Shown here one piece after another: positions 16,724 through 42,026 of a stretch of 64,000 bases of DNA. How positions within the stretch are numbered: the first letter of the stretch is position 1; each line of letters begins with the position of its first letter. Source of the stretch: Rubrobacter indicoceani (GTDB taxonomy: Bacteria > Actinomycetota > Rubrobacteria > Rubrobacterales > Rubrobacteraceae); contig NZ_CP031115.1 in assembly GCF_003568865.1 (NCBI RefSeq), positions 2,542,001-2,606,000 on the forward strand. The letters run 5' to 3'. Made by a program: the position numbers and the translations under genes. A model generated the notes under the pieces. It had not been told where the DNA came from. It saw nothing but the letters and a program-made list of their open reading frames with translations, and searched no databases.

Positions 16724-16797
16724 GCGCTCGTAGCTCAGCCGGATAGAGCGTCTGACTACGAATCAGAAGGTCGCAGGTTCGAGTCCTGCCGAGCGCG
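16724..16797 (+). tRNA. tRNA-Arg (anticodon ACG)
   Basis: A full cloverleaf can be drawn: acceptor GCGCTCG with CGAGCGC, D arm around GCTCAGCCGGATAGAGC, anticodon stem TCTGA/TCAGA with loop CTACGAA (anticodon ACG at 16758-16760), and T arm GCAGG-TTCGAGT-CCTGC. The CCA end is not encoded. Its 3' half is the likely insertion site of the element to the right. Confidence 0.97.
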
Positions 16798-16807
16798 CAA
16801 AGGAAAG

Positions 16808-16910: not shown

Positions 16911-18107
16911 TTAGCTGTCTTTGGAGGGGTGCAGATTGCGTCCGAAACGCTCCATCGCGAGCCTTCTCGGGGCATCTCCGGTATGGACGTAGACATCTGC
17001 GGTGGTCTTTATGGAGGTGTGGCCGAGGATCTTCTGGAGGAGGGACAGATCCTCCCCCGACTCTACCCACAGTGTCGAGAAGCTATGACGGAGATCGTAG
17101 AGTCGGATGTCTGGCAGTCCGGCAGATTCCAGAAGCGGTTTGAAGTGGCGTCTTCGGATGTTGTTCGGATTCATGATTCCACCGTCCTGATTCGGGAACA
17201 CGAGGTCATGTTCTTCCCAGGTGTCGCTTCGCTGCGACTTCTCTTCGAGTTGGCGAGTACGATGAACCTTCAGAGCATCCACAACCTCTGGAAACAGAGG
17301 CACGGTTCTACGCATCTTGGTCTTTGTATTCTCGCGTAGCACGAAGCCCTGCTCCCTCGTGTGCTCGACCCTCCGCCCGATTCGAGCGGAGCCGGAGATC
17401 CCGGCTTCCTCCGGCAAGACAAGATCCGACCACTTCAGAGCGAGGATCTCTCCGGGCCTGAAACCAGAGCACGATGCAACAAAGAAGAATGCTTCGAAAC
17501 GATTCTGGGTCTTCGAAGCTTCTCTGAAAAAGATTTCCAGTTGTTCGAAGGATAGCGTCTTGCTCTCTTCTCGCTCCGGCATCTTCGGGGCATCCGCATC
17601 TCGCGCCGGGTTGTACGGAATCAATCGCTTCTTGACCGCATTCTGCAGGGCGGCTCTCCCAGTCGTGTGGACGTAACGAACGGTCGCAACACCCACACCT
17701 CTATCCAGAAGGATCTCGTAAAGATTTTCCAGATCCTCGGCGGTTAACTCGTGGAGCTTGACGTACCCGATGCAGTCAACCGGGATCAGGTATTTCTCCG
17801 CATGGTAGCGATAGTCCTGCAAGGTTCGCGCCGAGACCCGTCGCTTGAGGGGACCATCAAGCCACCTTTTCATATACGCTGCAACGGTGAGTCTGCGAGA
17901 CTCCAACGAGTATCCCTTTTCGAGGTCCTTCTCGAAGAGCTTTTTCTTTTTGAGGGCTTCGGACTCATTTCGACCGTAAAAACTTACCCGCTCTCTGCCT
18001 CCGGTCTTATGACGAAGCTCTTTCGGGATGTACAGACGGGCCTCTACCAGACCACCCTTGTGACTCCTGATGGTCCCCTCTCCGCGAGTTCTCTTCGTGC
18101 CAGACAT
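16911..18107 (-). CDS. int: Tyrosine recombinase / integrase
   Basis: A 398-residue site-specific recombinase. The N-terminal arm-binding part opens with GTIRSHKGGLVEARLYIPKE, then a SAM-like core-binding domain (about residues 70-165) and the catalytic domain. Catalytic residues visible: Arg in SCSGFRPGEILAL, YDLRH (the His of HxxR is Tyr, a common variant), LGHTSIKTTADVYVH with the second His, and the nucleophile Tyr in the last motif. It integrates the element into the adjacent tRNA-Arg. The 3' end of the gene faces the tRNA. No typical excisionase gene follows. Confidence 0.93.
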   Translation of the reverse strand: MSGTKRTRGEGTIRSHKGGLVEARLYIPKELRHKTGGRERVSFYGRNESEALKKKKLFEKDLEKGYSLESRRLTVAAYMKRWLDGPLKRRVSARTLQDYRYHAEKYLIPVDCIGYVKLHELTAEDLENLYEILLDRGVGVATVRYVHTTGRAALQNAVKKRLIPYNPARDADAPKMPEREESKTLSFEQLEIFFREASKTQNRFEAFFFVASCSGFRPGEILALKWSDLVLPEEAGISGSARIGRRVEHTREQGFVLRENTKTKMRRTVPLFPEVVDALKVHRTRQLEEKSQRSDTWEEHDLVFPNQDGGIMNPNNIRRRHFKPLLESAGLPDIRLYDLRHSFSTLWVESGEDLSLLQKILGHTSIKTTADVYVHTGDAPRRLAMERFGRNLHPSKDS

Positions 18108-25872: not shown

Positions 25873-25902
25873 GACTCTGAGAATTGCTGCCGGAGGTCTG
25901 TG

Positions 25903-27204
25903 TTGAGTTCCCTGCTCGCAGATATCCTCCGACGTCACGACAGAGGTGAAGCAGTCGGTATCTACTCGGTCTGTTCGGCACACCCGCTGGTGATAGAGAC
26001 GGCGGTCATACAGGCGCTCGAAGACGGCAGTCCCCTGCTCGTAGAGGCCACTTCCAACCAGGTGGATCAGTTCGGCGGGTACACCGGCATGAAGCCGGAG
26101 GACTTCCGGGATCTCGTGCTGGAGATAGCTCGCGAACACGGGCTGGAGCCGGACAGGATAATCCTCGGCGGGGACCATCTCGGCCCGAATACCTGGCAGG
26201 CCGAACCCGCAGAACAGGCGATGAAGAAAGCCGAAGCCTTGATCGAATCGTACGTCCGAGCCGGGTTCACGAAGATACACCTCGACTGCAGCATGCCCTG
26301 CGCGGATGATCCCACGACCCTCGACGATAGCGTAACCGCAGAGCGTGCAGCGAGGCTCGCTGCCGTCTCGGAGAAAGCTGCAACGGAGGTTGCGCTAACG
26401 GAGAAGCCTCTCTATATCGTCGGAACCGAAGTACCCGTCCCCGGCGGCGCGAGTGAGACTCTGACCGAGGTCGAGCCAACGGACGAGGCTGCTGCCCGTG
26501 CCACCATCGGAGCGCATGAGAGAGCCTTCCGGGACGCTGGGGTAGGAGAGGCGTGGGAAAGAGTCGTCGGCCTGGTCGTGCAGCCGGGCGTCGAGTTCGA
26601 CCACACCCGTGTAATAGCCTACGAACGAGGACTCGCGAGAGGTTTGAGTCAGGTTACAGAAGACCACGACGGGCTCGTATTCGAAGCGCACTCGACCGAC
26701 TACCAGACCTCGCAGAATCTGAAAGAGCTTGTTGAAGACCACTGGGCCATTCTCAAGGTCGGTCCAGCCCTGACTTTCGCGCTCCGGGAGTCTCTGTTCG
26801 CCCTCGAAGCTCTCGAAGCCGAACTTATTCCAGAGGAACGCAGATCCAACCTCCGCGAAGTCGTAGAGGGGGTGATGCTCTCCGAACCGGGACGCTGGCA
26901 GAAGTACTATCACGGCAACCAGGATGAGCAGCGCCTGCTGCGTAGCTACAGCTACAGCGACCGCATTCGCTACTACTGGAACGTCCCGGAGGTCCAGGCT
27001 GCACAGGAGCGACTCTTCTCCAACCTCTCAGAGACGAAGTTGCCGCTGCCGCTCATCAGTCAGTATCTACCGCTTCAGTATCAGAAGGTCAGAGACGGGG
27101 GGGTGAGTGCGGAACCGAAAGCACTCGTTCTGGATCACATAAGAAGTGTCTTGAAGGATTACGTCTTTGCGTGCGACCCGAGAGCCGAGGAGGCCCGAGT
27201 ATGA
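25903..27204 (+). CDS. gatZ: GatZ/KbaZ-like protein, stand-alone
   Basis: About 433 residues of the GatZ/KbaZ TIM-barrel family. Typical segments: GIYSVCSAHPLVIEAA-like GIYSVCSAHPLVIETAV, EATSNQVDQFGGYTGM, LGGDHLGPNTWQ, IHLDCSMPCADDP, VIAYERGLARGL and FEAHSTDYQT, with LISQYLPLQY near the end. Classically it is the non-catalytic subunit of tagatose-1,6-bisphosphate aldolase, but no GatY/KbaY partner is present here. Some lone relatives are described as hexose 4-epimerases. TTG 25903 is chosen (GGAGG at 6 bases); GTG 25900 is the alternative. It overlaps the SIS gene by ATGA. Confidence 0.88.
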   Translation: MSSLLADILRRHDRGEAVGIYSVCSAHPLVIETAVIQALEDGSPLLVEATSNQVDQFGGYTGMKPEDFRDLVLEIAREHGLEPDRIILGGDHLGPNTWQAEPAEQAMKKAEALIESYVRAGFTKIHLDCSMPCADDPTTLDDSVTAERAARLAAVSEKAATEVALTEKPLYIVGTEVPVPGGASETLTEVEPTDEAAARATIGAHERAFRDAGVGEAWERVVGLVVQPGVEFDHTRVIAYERGLARGLSQVTEDHDGLVFEAHSTDYQTSQNLKELVEDHWAILKVGPALTFALRESLFALEALEAELIPEERRSNLREVVEGVMLSEPGRWQKYYHGNQDEQRLLRSYSYSDRIRYYWNVPEVQAAQERLFSNLSETKLPLPLISQYLPLQYQKVRDGGVSAEPKALVLDHIRSVLKDYVFACDPRAEEARV

Positions 27205-28364
27205 CCGATAGTTCAGGCTACTCCCAGACCGACGTGAAGGAGCGCGGCGCAGAGTGGACCGCTCGCGAAATATCTCAGCAGCCTTCTATGTGGCGGCGCA
27301 CAGCCGAGATCCTGGAAGGGCGTTCATCTGAGATAAAGAGCTTCATCCAGCCTCTGATGTCCCGCAGAGAGCTGCGGATCGTCCTCGCCGGAGCCGGAAC
27401 CTCGGCCTTTGCCGGGGAGATACTCGCTCCTGCTCTGACCCGGCATCTGCGCCGGAGAGTGGACGCCGTCGCCACCACGGACATAGTCTCGAACCCGGCG
27501 GAATGTTTTGCGGAGGACGTACCCACGCTACTCGTGTCGTTCGCGAGGTCCGGCAACAGCCCGGAGAGCATCGCAGCGACGGATCTCGCCGGTCGCTACC
27601 TCTCCGAGTGTCATCAACTCATCATAACCTGTGCCGAAGACGGCAGGCTTTACCGGGATCACGCAGACGCCGAAAATTCTCTTGTAATGCTCATGCCTCC
27701 CGAGACGAACGACCGGGGATTCGCGATGACCTCGAGCTTCACCTCGATGATGCTCACCGCCTGGGCGGTTCTCGGCGGGACAGAAGACGTAACCGGGCTT
27801 GCGGCACGACTCTCCGCAGCGGCGGAAGGGATGATCTCAGAAGATCGCGAGCGCACGGATTCCCTTGCAGCCCGGGGATACGAGCGGGTTGTCTACATCG
27901 GAAGCGGTTCTCTGAAAGGGCTTGCTCACGAATCTTCCCTGAAGCTTCTGGAGCTGACGGCGGGACACATCGTGACGTACTTCGAGTCCCCTCTTGGTTT
28001 TCGGCACGGGCCAAAGTCCATTCTCAACGATAAAACGCTCGTCGTTGTCTACCTGTCCGCCGACCCGTACACCCGTAAGTACGATCTCGACCTGGTAGCT
28101 GAAATCCGGAACACGATGTCTTCGGGGAGCGTGGTCGTCCTCGACACCCTCGGCACCGGTGAACACCCGGACACCTGGACAATCGAAGGTCTCGAAGGTC
28201 TGCAGGATGTGGAGATAGCGCTGCCGTACGTGGTCGCCGCGCAGATGATCGGCCTCTCCTTCTCCCTTGCCCTCGGTTACACGCCGGATAATCCGTTCCC
28301 CGGAGGCGAGGTCAACAGGGTCGTCGAAGGGGTCACCATCTACTCTCCGGTCCGAGGAGCTTAA
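27201..28364 (+). CDS. agaS: SIS-domain sugar isomerase/deaminase (AgaS-like)
   Basis: 387 residues with two SIS domains. The first has VLAGAGTSAFAGEIL and VSFARSGNSPESIA; the second has RVVYIGSGSLKGLAHESSL and ESPLGFRHGPKS, the latter a hallmark of the AgaS/GlmS-isomerase group. AgaS converts galactosamine-6-phosphate to tagatose-6-phosphate and ammonia. ATG 27201 overlaps the gatZ stop; a longer in-frame extension to 27171 lies within gatZ and is ignored. Substrate class is inferred from family and neighbours. Confidence 0.9.
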   Translation: MTDSSGYSQTDVKERGAEWTAREISQQPSMWRRTAEILEGRSSEIKSFIQPLMSRRELRIVLAGAGTSAFAGEILAPALTRHLRRRVDAVATTDIVSNPAECFAEDVPTLLVSFARSGNSPESIAATDLAGRYLSECHQLIITCAEDGRLYRDHADAENSLVMLMPPETNDRGFAMTSSFTSMMLTAWAVLGGTEDVTGLAARLSAAAEGMISEDRERTDSLAARGYERVVYIGSGSLKGLAHESSLKLLELTAGHIVTYFESPLGFRHGPKSILNDKTLVVVYLSADPYTRKYDLDLVAEIRNTMSSGSVVVLDTLGTGEHPDTWTIEGLEGLQDVEIALPYVVAAQMIGLSFSLALGYTPDNPFPGGEVNRVVEGVTIYSPVRGA

Positions 28365-28365
28365 A

Positions 28366-29322
28366 GTGTTTCTCGGCGTAGACGGCGGTGGTTCAAAGAC
28401 CGCGTTCTGCGTTCTCGACGAGCGGGGAAGCGTCAGGGCACGGGCCCGGACGGAAAGCCTCTACTACTTCAGCGAAGGTATAGAGCTGGTCGAGAGGGTC
28501 CTGGAGCGTGGAGTACGTGAGATCTGCGAGACGGCCGGAATAGACAAATCGGAGATCGCAGGCGCCTTCTTCGGGCTCCCCGGATACGGAGAGGCAAGCG
28601 CAGATCTCAACAGCCTAGACGCGATTCCGGGCGGGGTTCTCGGGCACGACAGGTACGCCTGCGGGAACGACATGATCTGCGGCTGGGCCGGATCCCTCGG
28701 AGCTGTGGACGGCATAAACATTATCAGCGGCACAGGCTCCATGACCTATGGAGAGCGGGGCGGTTTCGGTGTCAGGGTCGGTGGCTGGGGCGAGCTTTTC
28801 GGAGACGAAGGCTCGGCATACTGGATAGCGACGCGAGGACTCAACGCTTTTACTCGGATGAGCGATGGAAGACTAGAACCCGGACCGCTCTACGAGACGA
28901 TTCTGAACCACCTCGATCTCGAAGGCGATTTGGATCTCATAGACATCGTCCTTAACCGTTGGAAGGGCAGTCGCAGCGAGATAGCAGCCCTGAGTCGTGT
29001 TGTCGTGGAAGCTGCGGAAGCCGGCGACGAGTGCGCAGCGGAGATCCTGTCCGAAGCGGCTGGTGAACTCGCCGAACTGGTCCACGCCACCCGAAGACAG
29101 CTGGACTTCGCGGCCGGAGAGAAAGTGCCCGTCTCTTACTCCGGCGGCATGTTCACTTCGGGGGTGATGCTCGATCTCTTCGGAGCCGCGCTCACCGAAG
29201 GTTACGACCAGTACGAGTTACGAAAACCCCTGTTCGCGCCGGATATCGGGGCGGCGCTTTACGCCGCCCGACTTTTCGGAAAGCGTATAGATCCAGAGGA
29301 CATCGTCACAAGCGCACTGTAA
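28366..29322 (+). CDS. BadF/BadG/BcrA-type amino-sugar kinase (NAGK-like)
   Basis: 318 residues of the ASKHA fold. GTG 28366 is preceded by GAGGAG and gives FLGVDGGGSKTAFCVLDE at the start, the phosphate-1 loop. Further motifs are GLPGYGE, NIISGTGSMTYG (phosphate-2) and GGWGELFGDEGSAYWIATRGL, which is characteristic of N-acetylglucosamine kinase-like proteins; VSYSGGMF is the adenosine motif. It probably phosphorylates the amino sugar that AgaS then processes. It follows agaS by one base. Confidence 0.87.
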   Translation: MFLGVDGGGSKTAFCVLDERGSVRARARTESLYYFSEGIELVERVLERGVREICETAGIDKSEIAGAFFGLPGYGEASADLNSLDAIPGGVLGHDRYACGNDMICGWAGSLGAVDGINIISGTGSMTYGERGGFGVRVGGWGELFGDEGSAYWIATRGLNAFTRMSDGRLEPGPLYETILNHLDLEGDLDLIDIVLNRWKGSRSEIAALSRVVVEAAEAGDECAAEILSEAAGELAELVHATRRQLDFAAGEKVPVSYSGGMFTSGVMLDLFGAALTEGYDQYELRKPLFAPDIGAALYAARLFGKRIDPEDIVTSAL

Positions 29323-29363
29323 AGCAATATCTGGCCTCGGCCAGAAAAGGGGAAAGGGACGAG

Positions 29364-30344
29364 ATGAATACGAGAAGCTGGATACCTTTTGCGGCACTGC
29401 TGGTGTTGTTCTGGGGAGTCTGGGGAGCATTCTCCAGCCTTCCTACGGCTCAGTATGGCTACCCGGACGAGATGGTGTACGTGATCTGGTCGATTACCAT
29501 GCTGATACCCGCGTTCTTTATACTTCGAAGCGAGCGAGTTTTCGACCGACGTCCTGTTGCGGCCTTCTACGGTTTGCTGATCGGCCTGACGGGGGCTGGC
29601 GGACAACTCATACTCTTCAAGACCCTGACGATAGGTCCTGCGTACCTTATATTTCCCCTTATCGCCCTCTCTCCGGGTATTACCGTTCTTCTGGCAACGT
29701 TTCTCCTTCGTGAAAGGCTGCTCGGTCTCACCAAGGTCGGGATCGTAGTTGCCCTTCTTGCTCTACTTTTCTTCAATATTTCCGGCAGCGGCGGAGATGC
29801 CTCCGTCGGACCGTGGCTCTTACTTGCCCTGATCATCACTGCTTGTTGGGGTGTACAGGCGTACTTCATGCGCAAGGCCGCAACCGTCGGGGTCAACGAC
29901 GGCACCACCTTCGGATACATGACCTTCAGCGGACTGCTGCTCGTACCGGTGGCGTTCATCATGATGGGTGGTCTACCAGAGAGCGCACCGTGGCAGGCTC
30001 CGGTTCTCGCGTTCGGCACGCAGCTCCTAAACGCGGTCGGCGCGCTCTTCCTGGTAATGGCTCTGAGCCGTGGCAAGGCTTCGATCGTCGCCCCCACTAC
30101 CAACGCTCTGGCTCCTGTCCTGACCGTGGTGGTCTCGCTCGTCTTCTACCAGACCTTCCCGAGCGTTTTCGGAGCTATCGGCATATTGCTCGCTATTCTC
30201 GGGTCCACCCTCATGGTCTACGGTGACGAGAAGCGTGGCGAAGTCTCGGCAGCGGAACAGGCTCGTATCAGTGGAGACGACTCCTTGGCTGCTGATGCAC
30301 CTGCCGAGAGCAGACCCGAATCAACCAGAAAGCGCGTAATGTAA
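29364..30344 (+). CDS. EamA/DMT-superfamily permease
   Basis: 326 residues with about ten membrane helices in two EamA repeats (WIPFAALLVLFWGVWGAFSS; LLLALIITACWGVQAYFMRK). The second half ends with GIGILLAILGSTL-like AIGILLAILGSTLMVYGDE. The charged C-terminal tail is cytosolic. It closes the amino-sugar operon and may take up the substrate; this is inferred from position only, as DMT proteins have very diverse substrates and drug/metabolite export is also possible. Confidence 0.82.
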   Translation: MNTRSWIPFAALLVLFWGVWGAFSSLPTAQYGYPDEMVYVIWSITMLIPAFFILRSERVFDRRPVAAFYGLLIGLTGAGGQLILFKTLTIGPAYLIFPLIALSPGITVLLATFLLRERLLGLTKVGIVVALLALLFFNISGSGGDASVGPWLLLALIITACWGVQAYFMRKAATVGVNDGTTFGYMTFSGLLLVPVAFIMMGGLPESAPWQAPVLAFGTQLLNAVGALFLVMALSRGKASIVAPTTNALAPVLTVVVSLVFYQTFPSVFGAIGILLAILGSTLMVYGDEKRGEVSAAEQARISGDDSLAADAPAESRPESTRKRVM

Positions 30345-30362
30345 CGATAGAGTATTCTGAAC

Positions 30363-30390
30363 GGGGTGCATACTGCAAATTATGCACCTC
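30363..30390. terminator. Inverted repeat between convergent operons
   Basis: GGTGCATA and TATGCACC pair perfectly around an 8-base loop, extended by a G-C pair and a wobble. It lies between the 3' ends of the permease gene and the lexA gene, so a bidirectional terminator is likely, although there is no clear T-tract. Confidence 0.6.
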
Positions 30391-30455
30391 GATCAATTGA
30401 GGGTCTAGAAGCCACAAAACTCGGTTGGCTAACCGGCGTCAATGACCGTTATCTT

Positions 30456-31094
30456 TCATCTTCTCGGCGGGTGGATCACGAACACCACCTCACCCTGCAC
30501 CCTCACCTCATCCGCAGGAAGCATGATGTCGCGGTGATCCCCGTTCTTCGGCACGAGCCTCACCATCTCCCCGTCCTCGCCCCTCTCCCGGTAGAGCTTC
30601 TTCACCGTTACCTCATCGCCTCCACCTATCAGGGCAACGACCACGCTCCCGTCCGGTGGGTCTTCTCGCTCCTCCACGACGAGCAAGTCCCCATCCTCTA
30701 TCCCGGCCCCCGTCATGGACTGCCCAACCACCCGGAGCAGATAACGCCTTCTACCACCGAGAGTACCGAGCACCTGATTCAGGGAGTAGTAGTCATCCTC
30801 AGCAACCGCTTCGAGACCCCGTCCCGCCGCAACCCGTCCGGGCATCGGAGCCTGACCAACCACCTCCCAGCCCCTCCCGGTAAGCCTCAGAGGACGACGC
30901 TTCCTCGACGGTGCATCGCCACGCTCTATGTAACCTTCTTCCTCCAGTATACCGAGATGGTAGTGAACGGTCTGAGCACTCGAAAGCCCTACAGAATCAG
31001 CAAGCTCCCGCACCGTAGGCATCTCTCCCCCACCTGACGATCTGGCAACAGCCCTCAGAATAGCGAGCCGCTTCGGATGAATAGAGTCACTCAA
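30456..31094 (-). CDS. lexA: LexA-type repressor
   Basis: 212 residues. The N-terminal winged helix has MPTVRELADSVGLSSAQTVH, YHLGILEEEGYIERG, matching LexA. The C-terminal S24 peptidase has the self-cleavage Ala90-Gly91 pair (RVAAGRGL), catalytic Ser126 in VVGQSM and Lys165 in EVTVKKLYRE. It is divergent from the DUF6504/dnaE2 operon by 364 bases, which suggests it regulates that operon. A housekeeping lexA probably exists elsewhere, making this an element-borne copy; that is an inference. Confidence 0.92.
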   Translation of the reverse strand: MSDSIHPKRLAILRAVARSSGGGEMPTVRELADSVGLSSAQTVHYHLGILEEEGYIERGDAPSRKRRPLRLTGRGWEVVGQAPMPGRVAAGRGLEAVAEDDYYSLNQVLGTLGGRRRYLLRVVGQSMTGAGIEDGDLLVVEEREDPPDGSVVVALIGGGDEVTVKKLYRERGEDGEMVRLVPKNGDHRDIMLPADEVRVQGEVVFVIHPPRR

Positions 31095-31458
31095 CTGTCT
31101 GTCCCAACGGATCCGTCATCCAAGACCGTCCCTTCAAAGTCTCACGAATGCAGATTAGCGCAATTTGCTCTGGACATCAAACAATTGTGTGATGTATGCT
31201 GAAAAAGGAGAAGTAAGGAGAAAAGAGAAGCTACGTAGGAGCCATGTAGAAGCGAAGCAGAAGAAAGCCAGGAAAAAGAACAGAGCGCCCTCACACCCGG
31301 ACTCTTCGAGGCCGACCGGCGACCAACCAGTATCCGGTCTCGAAGGGCATTTGCGGGGGTCATGAGAACGCCCGTCCCTGTAGGGTATTTTACTCCGGTA
31401 CGGCGGCTTTCTCGACCCCTCTCTTCCGGTCTTTTCGAGGCGCAGGGAGAGGAGAAGT
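31095..31458. other. Divergent promoter region lexA / dnaE2 operon
   Basis: 364 bases. I see AT-rich stretches (CAAACAATTGTGTG near 31179) and an AGGAG-containing leader before the TTG at 31459, but no convincing LexA box of the actinobacterial GAAC-N4-GTTC type. The short open frame around 31165-31365 is Lys/Arg-rich and has no recognisable domain. Confidence 0.4.
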
Positions 31459-31935
31459 TTGAGGCAGACTGCTGTCAATACCGTCAGTACAACCAGTGCG
31501 AAAGAGATACACCGCTATCCTTTGAAGCCGTCCGGGGTGGAGGAGCCGCTCTGGATGACTCTCGAGTGGCGGAGGACTGTTCTGGACCACCTCTGCGAAT
31601 CGTCGTGGCTGTGCAGGGCATCGGAGCTTCCGGTACGAACTGAGAGTACCGAGACAGCCCACAGAGCTTCGGAGCGCATCTACATACTCAGGAGAGCGTC
31701 TGAACTATCGGTGATCCGCTATGACCGTCCTCTACATGGTGCGCGAACATCTCGCTCTCTCTGGCGAAGGAAGCTCATCGTCGAGGTAATAGACCTGTGG
31801 CGGGAGATCAGAGGATGGTGGTCCTGTGAGGCCGTGGATCGCCTCGTCGTCAGGGTGATGCTTGCAGGAGGTGCGGTAGTGGATCTCGCCCGCTACGAAG
31901 AGGACGAGTGGAGACTTGTAGGGATAGTGGACTGA
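31459..31935 (+). CDS. DUF6504-like protein upstream of dnaE2
   Basis: About 158 residues from a TTG preceded by GGAGAGGAG. The C-terminal half is the recognisable part: IVEVIDLWREIRGWWSCEA followed by VRVMLAGGAVVDLARYEEDE, matching the short conserved protein found between imuB and dnaE2 in many actinobacterial mutagenesis cassettes. It ends two bases before dnaE2. Function is unknown; it probably accompanies the translesion polymerase. The N-terminal ~60 residues are unlike typical family members. Confidence 0.7.
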   Translation: MRQTAVNTVSTTSAKEIHRYPLKPSGVEEPLWMTLEWRRTVLDHLCESSWLCRASELPVRTESTETAHRASERIYILRRASELSVIRYDRPLHGARTSRSLWRRKLIVEVIDLWREIRGWWSCEAVDRLVVRVMLAGGAVVDLARYEEDEWRLVGIVD

Positions 31936-31936
31936 G

Positions 31937-34900
31937 GTGTTCGCTCACCTGCATGTGAGAAGTGGATACTCTTGGGGATACGGCACGGCAACGCCAGGGG
32001 AGCTGGTCGCTTTGGCGGCAGAGATAGGGATGAAGTTTCTGGCCCTCACAGACCGGGACTCCCTCTTCGGAGTGCCAACCCTCCTTGCAGCCTGCTCTAA
32101 GTACGGGGTATCACCCATCGCAGGGGTTGAGATCACGATGGAGGGAGACGGAGGATGCCCCGGCGGACATCTTGTGCTGCTCGTAGAGAGCGAGGCGGGC
32201 TACCGCAACCTGTGCCGGCTCATCACGAGCTACCGATGCTCCTCTGAAAATAGACGAAGACCATGCTGTAGGCTGAAGACTTTGCTCGAACACGCAGAAG
32301 GCCTCATCTGCCTTGCCGGAGCCATCCCGTTCGGCTACATTCCTGCCCCACTTCTCTCTGGGAACCTGAAGACGGCGAGACACCGCGTAGACGCTCTAAG
32401 GGAAGCGTTCGGGGATGGTCAGCTGTACGCGGAGATCACGAGCGACCTTACCCTCGGCAGCCGCCGCAGAGTACGCGCCGTCCACCAGTTCGCGAGGGAG
32501 TGCAATCTACCGCCCGTTGCCACGAACGAGGTCGCCTACCTCACGCGAGAAGACCACCGCCTGCACGAAGTACTCGCAGCAGCGTTTAGCCTCTCCCCCC
32601 TTCCACCATCGGACTACCGCCCCACAGACCAGCTCTACCTGAAAGACTCCCGAAGGATGACGAAGCTCTTCGAGGGATACCCCGGTGCTCTACGCAACAC
32701 CGAAGCCATCGCAGAACGGTGTGCGGGGGTCGTGAAACGTTCAAACGGCGTGCATATGCCGACGGCGAATCTGAAATACGGAGACACCGCAGAGAAGAAG
32801 CTCATCGGACTAGCGACCGCCGGAGCCAGAAGGAGATACTCAGAGGGCGAGATGTCGGAGGTGAAGAGAAGACTGAGACGGGAACTTTCGTGCATCTTCT
32901 CTTTAGGCTTCGCCCCCTACTTCCTCCTCGCCCGTGAAGCGGTAGAGATAGCGAAGACCGAAGGCTTGCCCGTTACCGGACGGGGGTCTTCCGCAAACTC
33001 TCTCGTCGCCCACTGCCTCGGCATCACCCGGCCCGAGCCTCTCTCAAACCGGCTGCTCTTCGAGCGGTTCCTCCACGAGGAACGTATAGACCCACCGGAT
33101 ATAGACCTCGACTTCTCCTCCACAGGACGCGAGCTCGTCAGGAACGAGCTGGTCCGCCGCTACGAGCGGCTCGGGGTAGCCGAGGCCGCAACCGTCAGCA
33201 CGCTATCCTTACGGGGAGCAGTTCGGGTAGCCGCACGCGCCCTCGGCCACTCTCCCCAGGAGATAAACGCTCTTTCGAAGGGAGTCCCCTCAAGGTTTAG
33301 AGACAGGGAGCGCATCTACAACTCCGTCTCCGGCTGGAACGAGGCTCTCCGGGAACCGTCCATGAGGAACCATCGCCTGCAAGATAAAGAAGAGCACTCC
33401 CTGCTCCTCGACCTGTCGTGGAGACTCCGGGGCAAACTGCATCAGGCGGGTACTCATTCTGGAGGTCTGGTATTCGGTACGGACTCGCTGCACCTCTCTG
33501 AGATAGTCCCTCTCGAACCATCCGGTATAGACGGCCTCCTGCGGGTGCAGGCGGACAAGGACGACCTGGAACTACTCGGCCTCCCGAAGCTCGACCTGCT
33601 CGTGCTGCGGATACACGATGCTCTGCACCACGCAGGAGAACTGGTCTCCAGGCGTCTTGCGGATGAAGGGAAGATAGAAGACGGTCAGAAGATAAATCCG
33701 CTCTCACCTCCCCCGGGAGATAAGGAGACCTACGCCCTCATCCGCACGGGGAAGAACATAGGGATGTTCCAGGTCGAGAGCCCGGGGCAGATGCACCTTA
33801 GTCAGAGGCTCAAGCCCCGCCGATTCGAGGACCTCGTCGCCCAGATATCCCTCTTCCGCCCCGGCCCTGTAAGGGGAGACTTCGTGACCCCCTATGTTCT
33901 GAGACGGAACGGCATCGAACCCTACCGGGCGATCACGGAGAAACTGGAAGAAGTCCTGAGACCGACCTACGGTGTCCTCATCTACCAAGAGCAGGTGCTC
34001 GAAGTAGCGCAGGCCGTCGCAGGGTTCTCTTTCAAGGAGGGTGACCTGCTGAGAAGGGCGATGACGAAAGACCGGGGTCCGGGGGCTATAGACTCCATCC
34101 GGGAAGAGTTCACAGGACGAGCGGCGGAGCGCGGTGTACCGGAGGAAGAAGCAGGTAAGGTCTTCGGATGGATCGAAGGTTTTAGTGGCTACGGCTTCCC
34201 GAAGGCGCACGCCGCCTCGTTCGCCGCTATCACCTACGCCTCAGCGTACATGAGACGCCACTACCCGGCGGAGTTCTTCACAGGGATACTCAACTCTCAG
34301 CCCATGGGCTTCTTCTCTCCGAGAACCGTCCTCAACGAAGCAAGGAGGGTGGGGGTCGGGGTACTGCCGCCGGACGTACATCTCTCCGGCAGAGGCTTTA
34401 CGGTGGAAGAAGATGGGGCGTCCGTCCGCGTCGGCCTCTCCTACTGTAAAGGACTCTCCCTGAGAGCTATGGACTCCATCCTCGAAGAGAGGGAGAAATC
34501 TCCCTTCGTCTCCGTAGCGGATCTCTACAGGAGAACGGATGTGGAGCGGGATTCTCTTGTGAACCTGATCCGGGGAGGCTACCTGGACACTCTGGCTATC
34601 GGGTCACCGTCCCGTGCTCGCGGGAAGCTCCTTGCAGAGGCATCACGATTACCGAAGAAGAAGCGTAGGTCGGGACAGGACGAGATCCCCGCTCACCCCG
34701 CAAGCTGGTGGTTCTCGTCCAAGAGCAGCGTGAAGTATCTTCCATCTCTTACTGAGGATACTGAGCAGGATCAATGGCGGGTACTAGGTCTGAACGTAGC
34801 CTGCCATCCCCTCACTGCAAACAGAAAAGCTCTGACCAGTCTCGGGGCCGTGGCGGCATCTGAGGTCATGTCTTTTCCCAGCGAAACCACCAAGAGTCGG

Positions 34901-35239
34901 TTCCGGGTAGCGGGGCTGCTCGAAACGCTACAGAGACCGCCTACGAAATCCGGGGCTGTCGTTCATTTCCTTCTTGTAGAGGACGAATCCGGGGTACTTC
35001 AGACGACGATATTCGAGGATGTGTACAGAAGGTACGGATACGTCCTGCACGAGTCCGGCTCGTACCTGCTCGATGGGGTCGTAGAGCGTGACCGCAGGCG
35101 TGGCGCGAGCTATCTGGTGAGCAGGATACAGAGCCTCGATGCGGTACTCCAGGGTACTGCAGGAACTGTGCCGGATGTGGTGGCGGCCGGCTCCGGAGCT
35201 TTTGTACGAGCGAGGCGGCGCGGCAGATGGGCTGGATAG
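31937..35239 (+). CDS. dnaE2: Error-prone DNA polymerase III alpha subunit DnaE2 (ImuC)
   Basis: 1100 residues. An N-terminal PHP domain opens with FAHLHVRSGYSWGYGTATP and contains ALTDRDSLFG; the C-family polymerase core has GRGSSANSLVAHCLGIT and the catalytic PDIDLDF at about 387-393, then QVESPGQMHLSQRLKP and the finger region GFSGYGFPKAHAASFA. HhH and OB domains follow (FRVAGLLETLQR; FLLVEDESGVLQTTIF). The length is that of DnaE2 rather than replicative DnaE. It starts with GTG right after the DUF6504 gene. No ImuB is present in the window. Confidence 0.94.
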   Translation: MFAHLHVRSGYSWGYGTATPGELVALAAEIGMKFLALTDRDSLFGVPTLLAACSKYGVSPIAGVEITMEGDGGCPGGHLVLLVESEAGYRNLCRLITSYRCSSENRRRPCCRLKTLLEHAEGLICLAGAIPFGYIPAPLLSGNLKTARHRVDALREAFGDGQLYAEITSDLTLGSRRRVRAVHQFARECNLPPVATNEVAYLTREDHRLHEVLAAAFSLSPLPPSDYRPTDQLYLKDSRRMTKLFEGYPGALRNTEAIAERCAGVVKRSNGVHMPTANLKYGDTAEKKLIGLATAGARRRYSEGEMSEVKRRLRRELSCIFSLGFAPYFLLAREAVEIAKTEGLPVTGRGSSANSLVAHCLGITRPEPLSNRLLFERFLHEERIDPPDIDLDFSSTGRELVRNELVRRYERLGVAEAATVSTLSLRGAVRVAARALGHSPQEINALSKGVPSRFRDRERIYNSVSGWNEALREPSMRNHRLQDKEEHSLLLDLSWRLRGKLHQAGTHSGGLVFGTDSLHLSEIVPLEPSGIDGLLRVQADKDDLELLGLPKLDLLVLRIHDALHHAGELVSRRLADEGKIEDGQKINPLSPPPGDKETYALIRTGKNIGMFQVESPGQMHLSQRLKPRRFEDLVAQISLFRPGPVRGDFVTPYVLRRNGIEPYRAITEKLEEVLRPTYGVLIYQEQVLEVAQAVAGFSFKEGDLLRRAMTKDRGPGAIDSIREEFTGRAAERGVPEEEAGKVFGWIEGFSGYGFPKAHAASFAAITYASAYMRRHYPAEFFTGILNSQPMGFFSPRTVLNEARRVGVGVLPPDVHLSGRGFTVEEDGASVRVGLSYCKGLSLRAMDSILEEREKSPFVSVADLYRRTDVERDSLVNLIRGGYLDTLAIGSPSRARGKLLAEASRLPKKKRRSGQDEIPAHPASWWFSSKSSVKYLPSLTEDTEQDQWRVLGLNVACHPLTANRKALTSLGAVAASEVMSFPSETTKSRFRVAGLLETLQRPPTKSGAVVHFLLVEDESGVLQTTIFEDVYRRYGYVLHESGSYLLDGVVERDRRRGASYLVSRIQSLDAVLQGTAGTVPDVVAAGSGAFVRARRRGRWAG

Positions 35240-35243: not shown

Positions 35244-35549
35244 TTACGTGCCGAAACAGGGGCTGGACCTCGCCCCAGCGTTAGAAGTTTCACTCCGACG
35301 CTTCTTTATAGTCGCGATGGCCTCGAACGAGCCGAGCAGCTTCCATGAAACCCTCGCAGCATCCTCCACCGCATCGCAGAAGACAATCCCGTTGACTCTG
35401 AAAGCTCGTTGAAATACAACCGGTGTCTTCCCTGAGTACTGTAGCGTGGCTGCGCGTATCTCCCTGTCAACCGCAATAGGCTGCAAACAGAAGATCTTGG
35501 CTGCGTTACCGTAGGTAGAGAAGATGGCTGTCGGGTGGAGTATGATCAC
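35244..35549 (-). CDS. Possible small protein, unknown
   Basis: A 101-residue open frame starting with GTG, without a clear ribosome binding site. The central stretch FQRAFRVNGIVFCDAVEDAA looks protein-like but belongs to no family I know. It is convergent with dnaE2, 4 bases away. It could be a gene remnant, as neighbouring sequence is decayed. Confidence 0.3.
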   Translation of the reverse strand: MIILHPTAIFSTYGNAAKIFCLQPIAVDREIRAATLQYSGKTPVVFQRAFRVNGIVFCDAVEDAARVSWKLLGSFEAIATIKKRRSETSNAGARSSPCFGT

Positions 35550-35570
35550 TATTCAGCAGATTTTTCTTGT

Positions 35571-36363
35571 TTAAGCTGTTTGTCGTAAATTTTTTTCTCG
35601 GGTTAGAAGCTCGGATGTTTCTGCCTCGCTCATCTCTATACGGTCAGCTTTTGCGAAGCTCAGAAAGAGAACGAGGAAAAATATGGTGCCGAGGAAGATC
35701 GCATTCGCCTCAACCGTCCCAAGCTGGAGGCCGCCCGCGCTGTGCTCCTGTGAGAGGTAGTCTCCGATGGATGCCCCCAATAGTCGCAGTAAAACGTAGG
35801 CGGTAAGGCGGGCACCGTATTCATCCTGCCAGTGCTACAAGCCCGATAGCCCTGGCAAACAGCAGCGCAGATGGCAGGAATCCGAGAGCGAGTCCTTCGA
35901 CGAGAGGGTCGTCCGTCGCTGTAACGAGCGCGAACGTGAACAGGATCGCCAGCCAGTAAAATGCTTTTCGCTTCGGTGTGCGAATGCTATGGACGGAGAG
36001 CGTCCTCTCGCTCATACACCAGATGGCGCATGTTATAGCCAGCGCGACGCTGAAAGCCACCGTCGTCATTCACAACGGAACTCCGAAATTATCCACCAGG
36101 TTATCGGTAGTGAGAGTGCCACCGATGCTGATGGGAAAACACCGCGAGCCAGTAGACGCTCGGCATATAGCGGTCAAGCCGGAACTGGGTGGCAAGTGCA
36201 ACGGCGAGGAACATGCTTATCACGACGGTCGAGATGAGCAGTCCGAGGTCGAGGTTCACGTTCAGGAAACCCGCAAACGTCTCGCCAACGGTGGTGCAGA
36301 GAACTTGATAATCCAGGAATAGGTCGTAACCTCTGGGACTTTACATAAGAGCTTTTTCACCAT
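35571..36363 (-). pseudogene. COG4705-type membrane protein, broken
   Basis: The minus strand encodes in pieces a COG4705 multi-spanning protein: an ATG at 36363 opens MVKKLLCKVPEVTTYSWIIK, then a one-base deletion shifts to VLCTTVGETFAGFLNVNLD, another shift occurs before SISIGGTLTTDNLVDNFGV, and the Trp expected before MTTVAFSVALAITCAIW is a TGA stop. A further internal deletion separates ALLFARAIGLVALAG from GASIGDYLSQEHSAGGLQLG. Four independent lesions make a sequencing artefact unlikely. The original gene would have had about 260 residues. Confidence 0.85.
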
Positions 36364-36877
36364 ATGCGATCGGTCGGTCGCGGGTTGCCAGCAGCTACGC
36401 TCACGGTCCCGTCCTCTTCACGTAGGGGGTCTGCTCTGTTCTGATACTTCACGTCTTCACGCCGTACCCATTCCGCGAAGAAAGGATCCTCTGCCCCTCG
36501 ACTGCGATCACGATAGAGTCGTCTTCCAGTAATCTGATGAGAGTGTTTGTCGGATGCTCTTCGTAATTGGTCTGAGATACGAAGGATACCCCGGACAAGA
36601 ATTCTCCGGGTGCGGCGATGTTTCTCTGACCGGTTAATCAGTAAGAATTTACTTAAATGCTGACGCTGTTCGTATCCAAAGTCACCTTGTCAGAAGCGAT
36701 GAGCACGACTGCTCGACCCCTTGTGCAAACGGTCTCGTCCAACCCGAAGACAACACCCGCCTACAGCGTCGTGGACGCGTTACTCACGTCTAATCACTGC
36801 AAGTGGTCGCTGGCTCTCTTTAGTGAGGCTAGATTCGAGCTGACTTCGATCCAGTCATCTGACTCCTCGGTTTCTCC
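36364..36877. other. Non-coding/decayed stretch
   Basis: No intact gene is visible. On the minus strand around 36470-36625 an open stretch encodes NYEEHPTNTLIRLLEDD and neighbouring residues but has no start codon and ends at a stop, so it looks like a remnant. The AT-rich part near 36630-36660 could hold the promoter of nothing identifiable. Confidence 0.4.
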
Positions 36878-37501
36878 CTACATGTCCATGTCCTGCATGT
36901 CGTTCTGTGTCGGAACGGGATCTTCACCCATACGACGGAGCATATTGTTCATCACAGAAATCTCGGTTCGTTGAGACGATACTATTGCTCTGGCGAGAGT
37001 CTCCACTTCGGGACGATTTGTTTGGTCTAGAACGGCGTTCGCCATCGGGATAGCAGCACTGTGGTGTTCAACCAAGAGCCGCAGGAACTCCGTGTCCATA
37101 TCGTCCGGTGGCAATTTTGAGAGCGAGATGATCTCATTTCGTGTTGCCATGCCAGGCATAAGTTCTCCGGCTTGCATTTCGTGTCCCATCCACGCCATCT
37201 GCTCTTCGCTGCCAGTCTGGGGCAGCTCCCAAACCGCGAGCCATCCCTGCATCTGCCCGATCTGGGCCTGCTGGGTCAGCACGATGTCGCTCGCCAAAGT
37301 GCGAACTTCCTCATTTTCCGTTCTGCTCTCTACAATAGAGGCTATTTCTACAGCTTGAGCGTGGTGAACGGCCATGTCGCGGGCGAATCCAGCCTCCGCT
37401 GAGGAGTCGTCCGGCATCCTCTGGGTTACAAACAAGACAACAGCGGCAGCCACGAGGACTGCCGCTGTTGCGAGGATCACATAAGGCACGCTTTTATACA
37501 T
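36878..37501 (-). CDS. DUF305 protein, membrane-anchored
   Basis: About 207 residues with one N-terminal membrane helix (YVILATAAVLVAAAVVLFV) and two ferritin-like DUF305 half-motifs: FARDMAVHHAQAVEIASIV and LVEHHSAAIPMANAVL. The Met-rich C-terminus (MLRRMGEDP and MQDMDM) and His/Met content suggest metal, possibly copper, binding outside the membrane; this is inference. ATG 37501 is chosen; a GTG at 37519 is possible. It follows the DUF3105 gene by about 30 bases in one operon. Confidence 0.88.
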   Translation of the reverse strand: MYKSVPYVILATAAVLVAAAVVLFVTQRMPDDSSAEAGFARDMAVHHAQAVEIASIVESRTENEEVRTLASDIVLTQQAQIGQMQGWLAVWELPQTGSEEQMAWMGHEMQAGELMPGMATRNEIISLSKLPPDDMDTEFLRLLVEHHSAAIPMANAVLDQTNRPEVETLARAIVSSQRTEISVMNNMLRRMGEDPVPTQNDMQDMDM

Positions 37502-37530
37502 TATCGTCCGGCCTCTCACTATTCGAAGTA

Positions 37531-38148
37531 TCAGGAAGGCGTGCCTACACCGCCTGTGCAGGGTGCGCCGGGTTCGGGCGACTGCGGTCCCTGACTGAAG
37601 GCGCGGACGAATTGTTCAAGCTCCGGGTCGCTCGCATCGTTTAGCTGGAGTTGTTTGCCCCAGGCGGAAGCGACTATCGGAGAGGCAAGGTCTTCGACAG
37701 GACTCGCGAGGATATAAGTCTGTTCGCGGGCGAGATCGCTGATGGTCTGTATCTGTTCACTCGGAAGTCCGGGCGCGTAGGAGATCCAGACCGCACCGTG
37801 TTCGAGTGAGTGGACGGCGTTCTCATTCCTGACGGGCTCTGTGTAGGAGCCACAGTTCTGCCACGCCGGGTCATGTTCGCCCCCGACAGGCGGGGTGCGG
37901 TCGTAGTCAACGTTTGCAGTGGTGTGCTGCGCGCCGGGCACGTCTATCGTCTCGGTTCCGGCTGGTTCGCCGCTTGCGGCCTGCTGGTTGACATCTAGGT
38001 AGATCACCACGGCGAGCGCAATCATCACCGCGATCACAAGCCCGGCAGCAACAATCAGACCGACCGGGAATCTACGTTCGGGCATCGTGATAAGCCGCCC
38101 TGATCCGGAGCGGTTTCGCCCGCTACTTCCTCCCGAAGAGTTCGTCAT
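37531..38148 (-). CDS. DUF3105 protein, membrane-anchored
   Basis: 205 residues. A polar N-terminus is followed by a membrane helix (VGLIVAAGLVIAVMIALAVV) and the extracytoplasmic DUF3105 domain: TPPVGGEHDPAWQNCGSY, NENAVHSLEHGAVWISYAP, with conserved Cys and His residues. A last CxGG lies near the end. DUF3105 is often next to DUF305 in Actinobacteria, as here. Function is unknown; a role in metal handling would fit the island. Confidence 0.88.
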   Translation of the reverse strand: MTNSSGGSSGRNRSGSGRLITMPERRFPVGLIVAAGLVIAVMIALAVVIYLDVNQQAASGEPAGTETIDVPGAQHTTANVDYDRTPPVGGEHDPAWQNCGSYTEPVRNENAVHSLEHGAVWISYAPGLPSEQIQTISDLAREQTYILASPVEDLASPIVASAWGKQLQLNDASDPELEQFVRAFSQGPQSPEPGAPCTGGVGTPS

Positions 38149-38280
38149 TCTGTTCTACCTCCGATAAATTCATTCTACTTATCAGGTCATCCGTGCTCAT
38201 ACCGTGAGGCTCTCTACGGGCGGGAAACGACACGTCAAGCGGATCCCGAAAACACCACAGAAGGACTTACGGCTTAGGGT

Positions 38281-38598
38281 TCAGACCCTCGGAGGCCGAA
38301 ACAGGGTAGACACACAGGTCTGACTGGACATCGCAGCCAACCCGAAACGCAACGAAGAGAGACTTCTCAAAACATCCGGTAGAGCGAAGGAGACTACGCT
38401 GAGTACCCCGACGACACAGGCAGCGGAAGTCGCACCGAGAGCGGAGTGAACCGCGTTCGGGCATCCGCGAGCCTCGCAGTCCACTACCGGGTACAGCGAC
38501 ACGAAAACCGCCACGACGATGGCCACCATCACGATGGTAATGTTCTGTTTGAGGCTCACGCAGAGGTCAGTATACCGCTCGTCGCCACTTTCTCTCAT
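38281..38598 (-). CDS. Small membrane protein, unknown
   Basis: 105 residues with two hydrophobic stretches (TIVMVAIVVAVFVSLYPVV; ACVVGVLSVVSFAL) and two cysteines between them (VDCEARGCPNA). No ribosome binding site is obvious before the ATG, and a later start is possible. It lies between the DUF3105 gene and the broken arsenic transporter. I do not recognise a family. Confidence 0.5.
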   Translation of the reverse strand: MRESGDERYTDLCVSLKQNITIVMVAIVVAVFVSLYPVVDCEARGCPNAVHSALGATSAACVVGVLSVVSFALPDVLRSLSSLRFGLAAMSSQTCVSTLFRPPRV

Positions 38599-38614
38599 TG
38601 AAATAGTGAGGGTC

Positions 38615-39604
38615 TTATTGGGCGTCGGGCATAATCCAGACGGGTATCATCCGCACGTAAACGAGCATGCCGACGAGCTCGACAAGCGTCTGAGTGATGA
38701 TTATTGCGGGCGCGATCTCATACCCTGCGGGAAGCGCGAGCGCGAGTGGCAGCACGACGAGCGAGTTACGCGTGGCACCAGTGAAGATGAGCGCCCGCCC
38801 GCTTGTCACCCCTAGAGAAAAGAGCCGCGCTGTCGCTCGTCCGACGAAGACCATGATGAGTAAAAACGCTACGTAGATCGGGACTACAGCCACGACCTAA
38901 TCAAGCACGCCTTCGAGCCTCGGGATCTGCGAGGCAACCATCGCGAGGAGCGTGAAAGCGAGAAAAGGAACCGGTAGATACCCCGCGAACGAGGTCCAGC
39001 GGTTCGTCAAGGTACCCGCCTTGGAGTTGCTTCCGGCGAGGTACTGCGTCCCGATGGCAAACCCGAGCGGCAGAACCACGAGGATAAAGAACGCCTCCAG
39101 AAACGGTCCGGCGCTGAAGATGGACAGAGCCTCCGACCCCAGGAAAAGCCAGAGGTAGACCGGGAGTGTGGCTATCTGGGAGATCATCAAGAGCGGTGTA
39201 GCGGCGGTTACCTTCTTCGCGTCGCCGCCGCCAAGCTCTGAGAAGACGATGACGTAATCTATGCAGGGCGTAAGCAACACCAGCAGAACCCCGATCAACA
39301 CCGCAGGCTCAGACGCGACGAACCTCGTAAGCCCGAAGACCAGAATCGGAACGAAGACAAAGTTCAGAGCGAGCACCGCTGCGAGGAACCTTCCGCTCGT
39401 GATGGAACCCTTTAGCTCCGTGAACGGAACTTGCAGGAAAGTCACATAAAGCAGGACGCCGAGAACAGGATAAATCGCTCTCTCGAAGAACGAATCCGCG
39501 CCGGGAGCGACCAGTCCCACCGCCGTACCGACAAACAATGCCGCAGCGTAGATCCAGACCTGGTAACGCTCAAGCCTCTCCTTGAGATTCGGCGAATTGA
39601 GCAT
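38615..39604 (-). pseudogene. ACR3/BASS-type arsenic resistance transporter interrupted by an amber codon
   Basis: Two segments in the same frame give one ten-helix transporter of 330 codons: MLNSPNLKERLERYQVWIYA... to QIPRLEGVLD, then TAG at 38897-38899, then VVAVVPIYVAFLLIMVFVGR to the natural end. Helices such as VLLYVTFLQVPF, LLTPCIDYVIVFSELGGG (with the Cys expected in arsenite transporters) and FTGATRNSLVVLPLALALP are typical. The stop is a single substitution, with no frameshift, so readthrough or recent inactivation are both possible. Confidence 0.82.
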
Positions 39605-39629
39605 TGGAAGAGTTTATCAAACACTATTT

Positions 39630-40925: not shown

Positions 40926-40964
40926 AACAACCCCACTCAGTATAACTTTTGCCTCAATTTTTAT

Positions 40965-41997: not shown

Positions 41998-42026
41998 ATT
42001 GCTCTCCAGATGTCGTAGACCACATT

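What the first reader, a model, noticed from the sequence alone, without database searches (positions are those of the whole stretch)
30456..35239. Element-borne LexA plus DnaE2 without ImuB
DnaE2 and the DUF6504 partner form a complete two-gene unit divergent from a LexA with intact cleavage site and Ser/Lys dyad, yet the usual ImuB (and ImuA) gene is missing. The mobile element could bring an inducible mutator that borrows a host ImuB, or the polymerase could act alone. The upstream 364 bases show no ordinary actinobacterial LexA box, so this LexA may use another site.
Basis: partly seen in the sequence, partly recalled or inferred. Interest (0 to 1): 0.52.

Follow-up and report, generated by a model that had tools for sequence, protein, structure and literature searches.

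The report
ImuB-less mutator cassette with RNA leader
A mobile piece of DNA in a Rubrobacter-type bacterium carries its own DNA-damage switch (LexA) facing a two-gene error-prone polymerase unit that lacks the usual ImuB partner, and a previously uncatalogued folded RNA leader, kept across the family, sits between switch and polymerase as a possible second control step.

Summary
LexA faces a two-gene unit: a small DUF6504-type protein and a DnaE2-like polymerase. The genome has no Y-family gene by two Pfam models, so 'borrows a host ImuB' fails. The cassette is element-borne: a 44-bp repeat of the tRNA-Arg 3' end bounds a ~91-kb ICE-like element; a published strain comparison found a chromosomal lexA on an 87-kb strain-specific segment (PMC4148983).

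It is not a one-off: DnaE2-like genes occur in 23 of 39 family genomes. The LexA site is CAAAC-N4-GTTTG, exact in 16 of 26 leader-bearing loci and also before stand-alone lexA genes. Between operator and first gene lies a ~130-nt covarying RNA (0 of 500 shuffles reach it), absent from Rfam and from 313 genomes outside the family.

Best reading: a LexA-controlled two-subunit mutasome of the published DnaE2-[ImuB-C] kind, whose polymerase keeps a clamp-motif-like loop, with a structured leader as probable second gate. Anatomy is shown; induction, clamp docking, mutagenesis and RNA function are inferred. New variant of a known kind; the leader is the newest part.

The parts
30456..31094 (-). lexA (212 aa): winged-helix domain plus S24 autopeptidase; A90-G91, S126, K165
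   Evidence: TIGR00498 118.3 bits over cut-off 110.95
31152..31180 (-). predicted leftward lexA promoter (-35 TTGATG 31180-31175, 17-bp spacer, -10 TAATCT 31157-31152); -35 overlaps the operator
   Evidence: read from sequence; promoter call is inference
31171..31200 (+). predicted rightward promoter of the polymerase unit (-35 TGGACA 31171-31176, 18-bp spacer, -10 TATGCT 31195-31200); the operator fills the spacer
   Evidence: the same layout (TNGAC ... TAGNGT-like) in most of the 26 loci
31178..31191 (.). LexA operator CAAACAATTGTGTG (1 mismatch to CAAAC-N4-GTTTG) inside a 22-bp near-palindrome 31174-31195
31278..31411 (+). core of the conserved structured RNA leader: P1 (GCG 31285-31287 with CGC 31369-31371), P2 long hairpin with conserved CGACCAACC loop, P3 hairpin with A[UG]U[AGU]UA loop
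31412..31458 (+). C-rich tract and Shine-Dalgarno stretch before the first gene; predicted largely paired (P unpaired 0.21 for -14..-5)
   Evidence: the native-versus-swapped test for this helix was not significant (669 of 5000)
31459..31935 (+). small accessory protein (158 aa, TTG start): N-terminal arm with EEPLW, C-terminal DUF6504-type beta domain
31937..35239 (+). DnaE2-like C-family polymerase (1100 aa): catalytic D388, D390, D553; PHP motif TDRD at 38; Q914-D-E-I-P at the replicative clamp-motif position; no domain matched after the weak OB match (990-1065)
16724..16798 (+). tRNA-Arg (ACG), integration site; left copy of the 44-bp repeat at 16756-16799, right copy 90,928 bp further on (G000:C1:2649684)
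16911..18107 (-). tyrosine integrase of the element
   Evidence: PF00589, 3.2e-22

Best explanation
An ICE-borne, LexA-autoregulated, two-subunit error-prone polymerase. LexA binds one CAAAC-N4-GTTTG operator that overlaps both divergent promoters, so it silences itself and the polymerase unit until RecA-driven self-cleavage. The message carries a ~250-nt leader with a conserved three-helix RNA and a predicted occluded Shine-Dalgarno site, probably a second, translational gate. The two products form a reduced mutasome: a free DUF6504/ImuB-C-type adaptor and a DnaE2 with intact catalysis and a disrupted PHP metal motif. The polymerase reaches the beta clamp through its own Q-x-E-[IL]-P-x motif, perhaps helped by the adaptor's EEPL[FW] arm, instead of through ImuB. 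Shown: gene content, absence of Y-family matches, conservation of operator and RNA, element boundaries. Inferred: LexA binding, induction, clamp docking, the adaptor-polymerase complex, mutagenesis and the RNA's function.
For: No Y-family match in own genome. Family-wide unit: dnaE2-like gene in 23 of 39 genomes, two of them only as fragments; small gene directly upstream in the loci where that stretch could be read. Operator exact in 16 of 26 leader-bearing loci and within one mismatch in 21 of 26; shuffled upstream stretches give 0 and 16 of 5200. Box also before lexA genes that lack a strong leader hit: exact in 5 of 10, <=1 mismatch in 7 of 10, <=2 in 10 of 10, with two near-identical pairs among the ten. 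Leader: 26 sites in 22 of 39 genomes, 25 of the 26 beside a lexA and one at a contig end; covariation score 0.347 against 0.146 in shuffles (0 of 500), 14 of 23 pairs with double changes; P2 and P3 arms fit their own partners better than swapped ones (0 of 5000 permutations reach it, each). Outside inner P1, G-U outnumbers A-C pairs 35 to 9, as expected for RNA of this strand. Q-x-E-[IL]-P in 15 of 17 polymerases at the QF[ASC]MF position of DnaE1; catalytic Asp in 17 of 17; TDH changed to TD[RQ] in 17 of 17. Element: integrase, 44-bp repeat, conjugation-type genes. A DnaE2-[ImuB-C] module is described in PMC12926913 (section 20 read whole).
Against: No expression, binding or mutagenesis data. 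The adaptor's tie to ImuB C-termini was not supported by my own profile comparison (0.9% probability; 0.3% with a single DUF6504 protein) nor by an HMM search; it rests on DUF6504 hits plus the literature. EEPL[FW] lacks the canonical Gln. The polymerase passes neither NCBIfam cut-off (error-prone 705 of 939; DnaE1 707 of 1002). The anti-SD helix shows no partner-specific fit (669 of 5000). MFE z-scores of single leaders are not unusual, and P1's inner helix pairs in only 76.5% of cells; with it included G-U and A-C are 36 and 32. RNAalifold on the plain MAFFT alignment found only 13 pairs and almost no covariation term.
Confidence: 0.62

Rival explanations
1. A host ImuB or other Y-family protein supplied in trans completes a normal ImuA-ImuB-DnaE2 mutasome.
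For: In mycobacteria the polymerase needs ImuB (stated in passages of PMC3919608 seen). PF00817 alone can miss ImuB: the Thermomicrobium protein upstream of its error-prone polymerase matched only PF11799.
Against: Neither PF00817 nor PF11799 matches the own genome; 0 of 23 dnaE2-bearing family genomes have PF00817; tblastn with seven neighbouring Y-family/ImuB-type proteins found nothing convincing in the window (best E 0.46).
Confidence: 0.04
2. The polymerase is not a mutator but a backup or element-maintenance polymerase, and LexA is mainly the element's own switch.
For: Carried on an ICE-like element and on plasmids of two species; neither NCBIfam class fits by cut-off; one Streptomyces dnaE2 mutant had no phenotype (passage of PMC3919608).
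Against: Divergent from LexA with a shared operator; DUF6504 neighbour; disrupted PHP metal motif and no matched domain after the weak OB match; only one other box (<=1 mismatch) in the ~91-kb element, at extended coordinate 94582, not shown to lie in a promoter.
Confidence: 0.18
3. The conserved leader is a DNA-level element or drift of GC-rich repeats, with no RNA function.
For: GC-rich; single-sequence folding energies not exceptional; leaders persist where dnaE2 is not adjacent (L031, L049, L079).
Against: Double changes in 14 of 23 pairs, 0 of 500 shuffles; 35 G-U against 9 A-C pairs outside inner P1; loops conserved while stems change; core lengths 122-140 nt are out of phase and no frame is open in all 26.
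Confidence: 0.15
4. The small protein is unrelated to ImuB-C and regulates or inhibits the polymerase.
For: hhalign and HMM searches did not link it to five ImuB C-termini; PDB fold search of the low-confidence model found nothing.
Against: Two orthologues pass the DUF6504 cut-off; the model's C-terminal half is a run of beta strands, as described for ImuB-C in PMC12926913 (passages).
Confidence: 0.2

Closest known systems
DnaE2-[ImuB-C] association module (PMC12926913, NAR 2026; example Arthrobacter alpinus)
   Same: DnaE2 in a genome without ImuA/ImuB, linked only to a free small beta-rich protein; said there to be found only in Actinobacteria
   Different: Rubrobacter is not named in its main text (word count); here the unit faces lexA, rides on an ICE-like element, has a family-specific N-terminal arm, a changed LexA box and a structured leader RNA
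ImuA-ImuB-DnaE2 (imuABC) mutasome
   Same: LexA-linked accessory DnaE polymerase, expected to be damage-inducible and error-prone
   Different: no Y-family match; no ImuA gene seen; polymerase outside the DnaE2A sample of the tree
Stand-alone ImuB-C superfamily (PMC3765255 and PMC6511836)
   Same: solo ImuB-C gene beside DnaE2 with or without an inactive DinB was already noted in 2013 (passage)
   Different: no Y-family match anywhere in the genome; extra N-terminal arm with EEPL[FW]
Chromosomal lexA segment of Rubrobacter radiotolerans DSM 5868 (PMC4148983, sections 13 and 16 read)
   Same: lexA Rrad_2461 on an extra 87,086-bp integrase-flanked segment absent from strain RSPS-4; probably the same element family as here
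   Different: that paper's main text does not mention DnaE or polymerase (word search), and the sections read do not mention the operator or the leader
Cheo-type LexA box CGAAC-N4-GTTCG (recalled, from no call)
   Same: two half-sites with a 4-bp spacer
   Different: second and second-last bases changed: CAAAC-N4-GTTTG

Membership tests
ImuA-ImuB-DnaE2 mutasome | ImuB (inactive Y-family protein) present | tested here: not met
   no PF00817 or PF11799 match in own genome
ImuA-ImuB-DnaE2 mutasome | ImuA (RecA-like) present | tested here: inconclusive
   RecA plus one weak sub-cut-off PF00154 match (20.4 bits) far away; no ImuA-specific model was run
DnaE2-[ImuB-C] module (PMC12926913) | DnaE2 in a genome without ImuB | tested here: met
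DnaE2-[ImuB-C] module (PMC12926913) | partner is a stand-alone ImuB-C protein | tested here: inconclusive
   DUF6504 in 10 of 19 orthologues at E<=1, 2 over cut-off; direct comparison with five ImuB C-termini gave 0.9% probability
DnaE2-[ImuB-C] module (PMC12926913) | polymerase falls in group DnaE2B | not tested
   tree holds no identified DnaE2B reference; 17 Rubrobacteraceae sequences form one clade (100/100) apart from the DnaE2A sample
DnaE2 (PMC3919608) | no C-terminal tau-binding domain | tested here: met
   no Pfam match after the weak OB match at 990-1065 of 1100 aa; judged from length and Pfam, not from a CTD model
DnaE2 (PMC3919608) | PHP metal site disrupted in most members | tested here: met
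   TDH of DnaE1 is TD[RQ] in 17 of 17
DnaE2 (NCBIfam PRK05672) | curated score cut-off | tested here: not met
   705 of 939 bits; DnaE1 model PRK05673 706.9 of 1002
DnaE2 (PMC3919608) | C-terminal SRDF[HR] motif (about 77% of members) | tested here: not met
   C-terminus ends RARRRGRWAG
LexA | TIGR00498 cut-off, Ala-Gly site, Ser/Lys dyad | tested here: met
LexA regulation | LexA binds the operator and represses | not testable with these tools
   only conservation of the site
Known RNA families (Rfam 15) | match to a family | tested here: not met
   none at gathering score in 18 loci; window 31050-31600 only two chance-level hits at E 1.8 and 4.1
Integrative and conjugative element | integrase, att repeats in a tRNA gene, conjugation genes | tested here: inconclusive
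   integrase and 44-bp repeat met; VirB4/TraG-type ATPase met, TraG-D and TrbL just below cut-off; relaxase only as Replic_Relax

The most novel reading that the evidence does not exclude
A new class of cis-regulatory RNA gates an SOS mutasome: LexA is the transcriptional lock and the leader RNA a second, translational lock on an ImuB-free, self-clamping DnaE2 plus adaptor, the whole double-locked mutator travelling on conjugative elements and plasmids through a bacterial family, with radiation-resistant members, that mostly lacks Y-family polymerases.
Probability: 0.35. Interest if true: 0.82.

Novelty: new variant of a known kind. Interest (0 to 1): 0.62.

Why it matters
It gives a minimal test bed for what ImuB is for: a family in which DnaE2 operates with, at most, an ImuB-C-type adaptor and its own clamp-like motif. 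It proposes the LexA site of Rubrobacteraceae, so their SOS regulon can be mapped; recA loci lack the exact site in the 30 tested. If the leader is functional, induced mutagenesis has an RNA checkpoint that I did not find described in the papers searched. That the cassette rides on a strain-variable element means a damage-inducible mutator may be an accessory trait in this family.

Tried and rejected
Host-supplied ImuB: rejected. LexA regulon including recA: 30 recA loci scanned, 0 exact boxes; one at one mismatch (L086) and three at two mismatches (L093, L099, L110); by position L086 and L093 appear to lie in coding sequence, L099 and L110 further upstream. Leader as a coding region: rejected, lengths not in phase and no frame open in all 26. 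SD-sequestering helix by partner swapping: the first test used overlapping segments and is void; the clean one is not significant. Riboswitch used at several loci: rejected within the genomes searched, since strong hits are only beside lexA or at a contig end. ImuB-C link by hhalign and HMM: negative. PDB fold search with the adaptor model (mean pLDDT 62): no match at E<=0.001. Viral contigs: 27 pattern matches, none a relative. The first RNAalifold run on a MAFFT alignment failed to show the structure because the stems vary in length; the covariation numbers come from a model-guided alignment, which leans towards the model, so the alignment-free arm swap is the independent test. The first alignment had two rows (L014, L017) in wrong frames; one search replaces it. 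The first arm-swap run failed for one locus and left out two; one search replaces it. Dropped rows: L022 (frameshifted) and L021 (shortened) small proteins were left out of A4; other loci whose small gene the regex did not find (for example L060, L061, L056, L024) are also not in A4. Papers: PMC12926913 section 20 whole and passages; PMC4148983 sections 13 and 16 whole and passages; PMC6511836, PMC3919608 and PMC3765255 abstracts or passages only; PMC4151985 (horizontally transferred mutator genes in a legume symbiont) seen in a search listing only. Not-in-print statements rest on searches of an open-access library without most subscription journals.

Full report
What is there. The window (G000:C1:2542001-2606000; genome 3.08 Mb in 3 contigs, 99.99% complete) holds lexA on the minus strand at 30456-31094, and on the plus strand a 158-aa gene at 31459-31935 followed at once by a 1100-aa DnaE-type polymerase at 31937-35239. 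LexA passes the TIGR00498 cut-off and has A90-G91, S126 and K165.

No ImuB anywhere. PF00817 finds nothing in the own genome, nor does PF11799, which I added because one ImuB-type protein matched only that model. In the family, PF00817 hits 1 of 39 genomes (G038, a 470-aa DinB-like frame by eye, and no dnaE2). PF11799 passes its cut-off in 3 of 39: G038 and two weak 53-position matches in G030 and G031, which I did not resolve. A dnaE2-like gene of at least 53% identity is in 23 of 39 genomes, in two only as fragments. So an ImuB-free DnaE2 is the rule here, and the idea of a borrowed host ImuB fails.

The cassette is family-wide. The small gene was found directly upstream of dnaE2 in 21 loci by a motif search, and an HMM of 19 of them recovers further copies, including those on Rubrobacter marinus and R. 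tropicus plasmids. A few loci, such as the R. marinus chromosomal and plasmid copies, have broken dnaE2 frames.

The operator. Between lexA and the small gene lies a palindrome CAAAC-N4-GTTTG. In 26 loci that carry the leader it is exact in 16 and within one mismatch in 21; shuffled upstream stretches give 0 and 16 of 5200. I then looked upstream of 14 lexA loci (of 49 matching stretches). Ten of the 14 lack a strong leader hit; among these the box is exact in five (including this genome's second lexA), within one mismatch in seven and within two in ten; L039/L040 and L046/L048 are near-identical pairs, and L050 is the disrupted cassette of G013. The window's own box has one mismatch. The operator fills the spacer of a predicted rightward promoter and overlaps the -35 of the predicted lexA promoter (inference from sequence). 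Genome-wide the exact box occurs three times, two of them at the second lexA locus: before that lexA, and 1.8 kb away before a DUF5131 gene. Of 30 recA loci none has an exact box.

The leader RNA. From about 31278 to 31411 the sequence is conserved across the family as alternating fixed loops and variable stems. A covariance model from 11 sequences finds 26 sites in 22 of 39 genomes at E<=1.2e-4; 25 of the 26 lie beside a lexA match and one lies at a contig end. In a sample of 346 genomes of the phylum, 18 match, all in this family, so 0 of 313 outside it (stricter filters, weak matches may be lost). Rfam has no match. On the 26 sequences, 14 of 23 pairs show changes on both sides, 62 cells against 17.9 in shuffles, covariation score 0.347 against 0.146 (0 of 500), and slid structures reach at most 0.073. 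That alignment was guided by the model, so I also tested without alignment: pairing energies of the P2 and P3 arms with their own partners beat random reassignment in 5000 of 5000 permutations (P2, n=25; P3, n=26), P1 in 4994 of 5000 (n=26). These permutations ignore relatedness. Outside the poorly kept inner P1, G-U pairs outnumber A-C pairs 35 to 9, as expected for an RNA of this strand; with inner P1 the counts are 36 and 32. It is not coding. The Shine-Dalgarno stretch is predicted mostly paired in the window (unpaired probability 0.21), but the helix that would hide it shows no partner-specific fit. A translational gate is therefore my inference, not a result.

The proteins. The adaptor's C-terminal half matches DUF6504 in 10 of 19 members at E<=1, two over the cut-off; the window's own copy does not match. 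AlphaFold2 gives mean pLDDT 62.3 with the C-terminal half made of beta strands. All 19 rows keep E-P-L followed by F or W in the arm, like the xLPLF clamp motif reported for some DnaE2s (PMC3919608, passage), but without a fixed Gln. The polymerase keeps its three catalytic Asp in 17 of 17, has lost the TDH histidine of the PHP motif in 17 of 17, and carries Q-x-E-[IL]-P in 15 of 17 exactly where DnaE1 has QF[ASC]MF; PMC3919608 reports a related QLPLxL variant in some Actinobacteria. Hence the proposal that it docks on the clamp itself. The tree puts the 17 sequences in one clade (100/100) apart from the DnaE2A sample, without resolving where it attaches.

The element. A 44-bp perfect copy of the tRNA-Arg 3' end lies 90,928 bp from the first, next to a tyrosine integrase and with conjugation-type genes between. 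In G010 of the same genus the cassette lies directly between sequences matching window 24774 and 46443, so this element has extra DNA on both sides. G010 is probably R. radiotolerans DSM 5868 by size and lexA layout (inference); the published comparison puts a chromosomal lexA (Rrad_2461) on an 87,086-bp integrase-flanked segment absent from RSPS-4, in which no lexA was detected (PMC4148983).

Comparison with what is known. A DnaE2 linked only to ImuB-C was described in 2026 with Arthrobacter alpinus as example, and a solo ImuB-C gene beside DnaE2 in 2013; so the protein pair is a new variant of a known kind. What I did not find in print, within the open-access searches listed, is the operator, the leader RNA, the mobile LexA-facing arrangement with the polymerase and the family-wide scarcity of Y-family genes.

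Noticed in passing
L079 (G038:C82:5795-5928, minus): The leader RNA lies beside lexA but upstream of a BTAD-type regulator gene; this genome has a DinB-like Y-family gene and no dnaE2.
   Followed up: partly
L031 and L049: Leader kept beside lexA where the small gene is decayed or not recognised and dnaE2 is not adjacent (R. marinus second chromosomal lexA; G007).
   Followed up: partly
L127 (G000:C1:1866111): Exact LexA box between divergent genes 1.8 kb from the second lexA; one neighbour is DUF5131, suggesting a second small SOS unit.
   Followed up: partly
window 53247-54290: ArdC N-terminal anti-restriction domain joined to an IrrE-like M78 peptidase match on the element.
   Followed up: no
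L136 (G000:C1:2626001-2646000): Cluster with Eco57I-type methylase, SMC-like ATPase, SIR2_2 protein and KAP NTPase near the element's right end; looks defence-like.
   Followed up: no
L008/L050 (G013): lexA and the small gene are about 1.5 kb apart instead of about 0.4 kb, with inserted, transposase-like sequence by eye and only a weak leader relic.
   Followed up: no
L133, L134 (G030, G031): Weak 53-position IMS_C matches of equal score in both genomes, in frames recorded as 319 aa; nature unknown.
   Followed up: no
window 24774-30460 and 35252-46443: DNA on both sides of the cassette that is absent at the same place in G010, including metal-transport genes and, by eye, sugar-metabolism genes.
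   Followed up: partly
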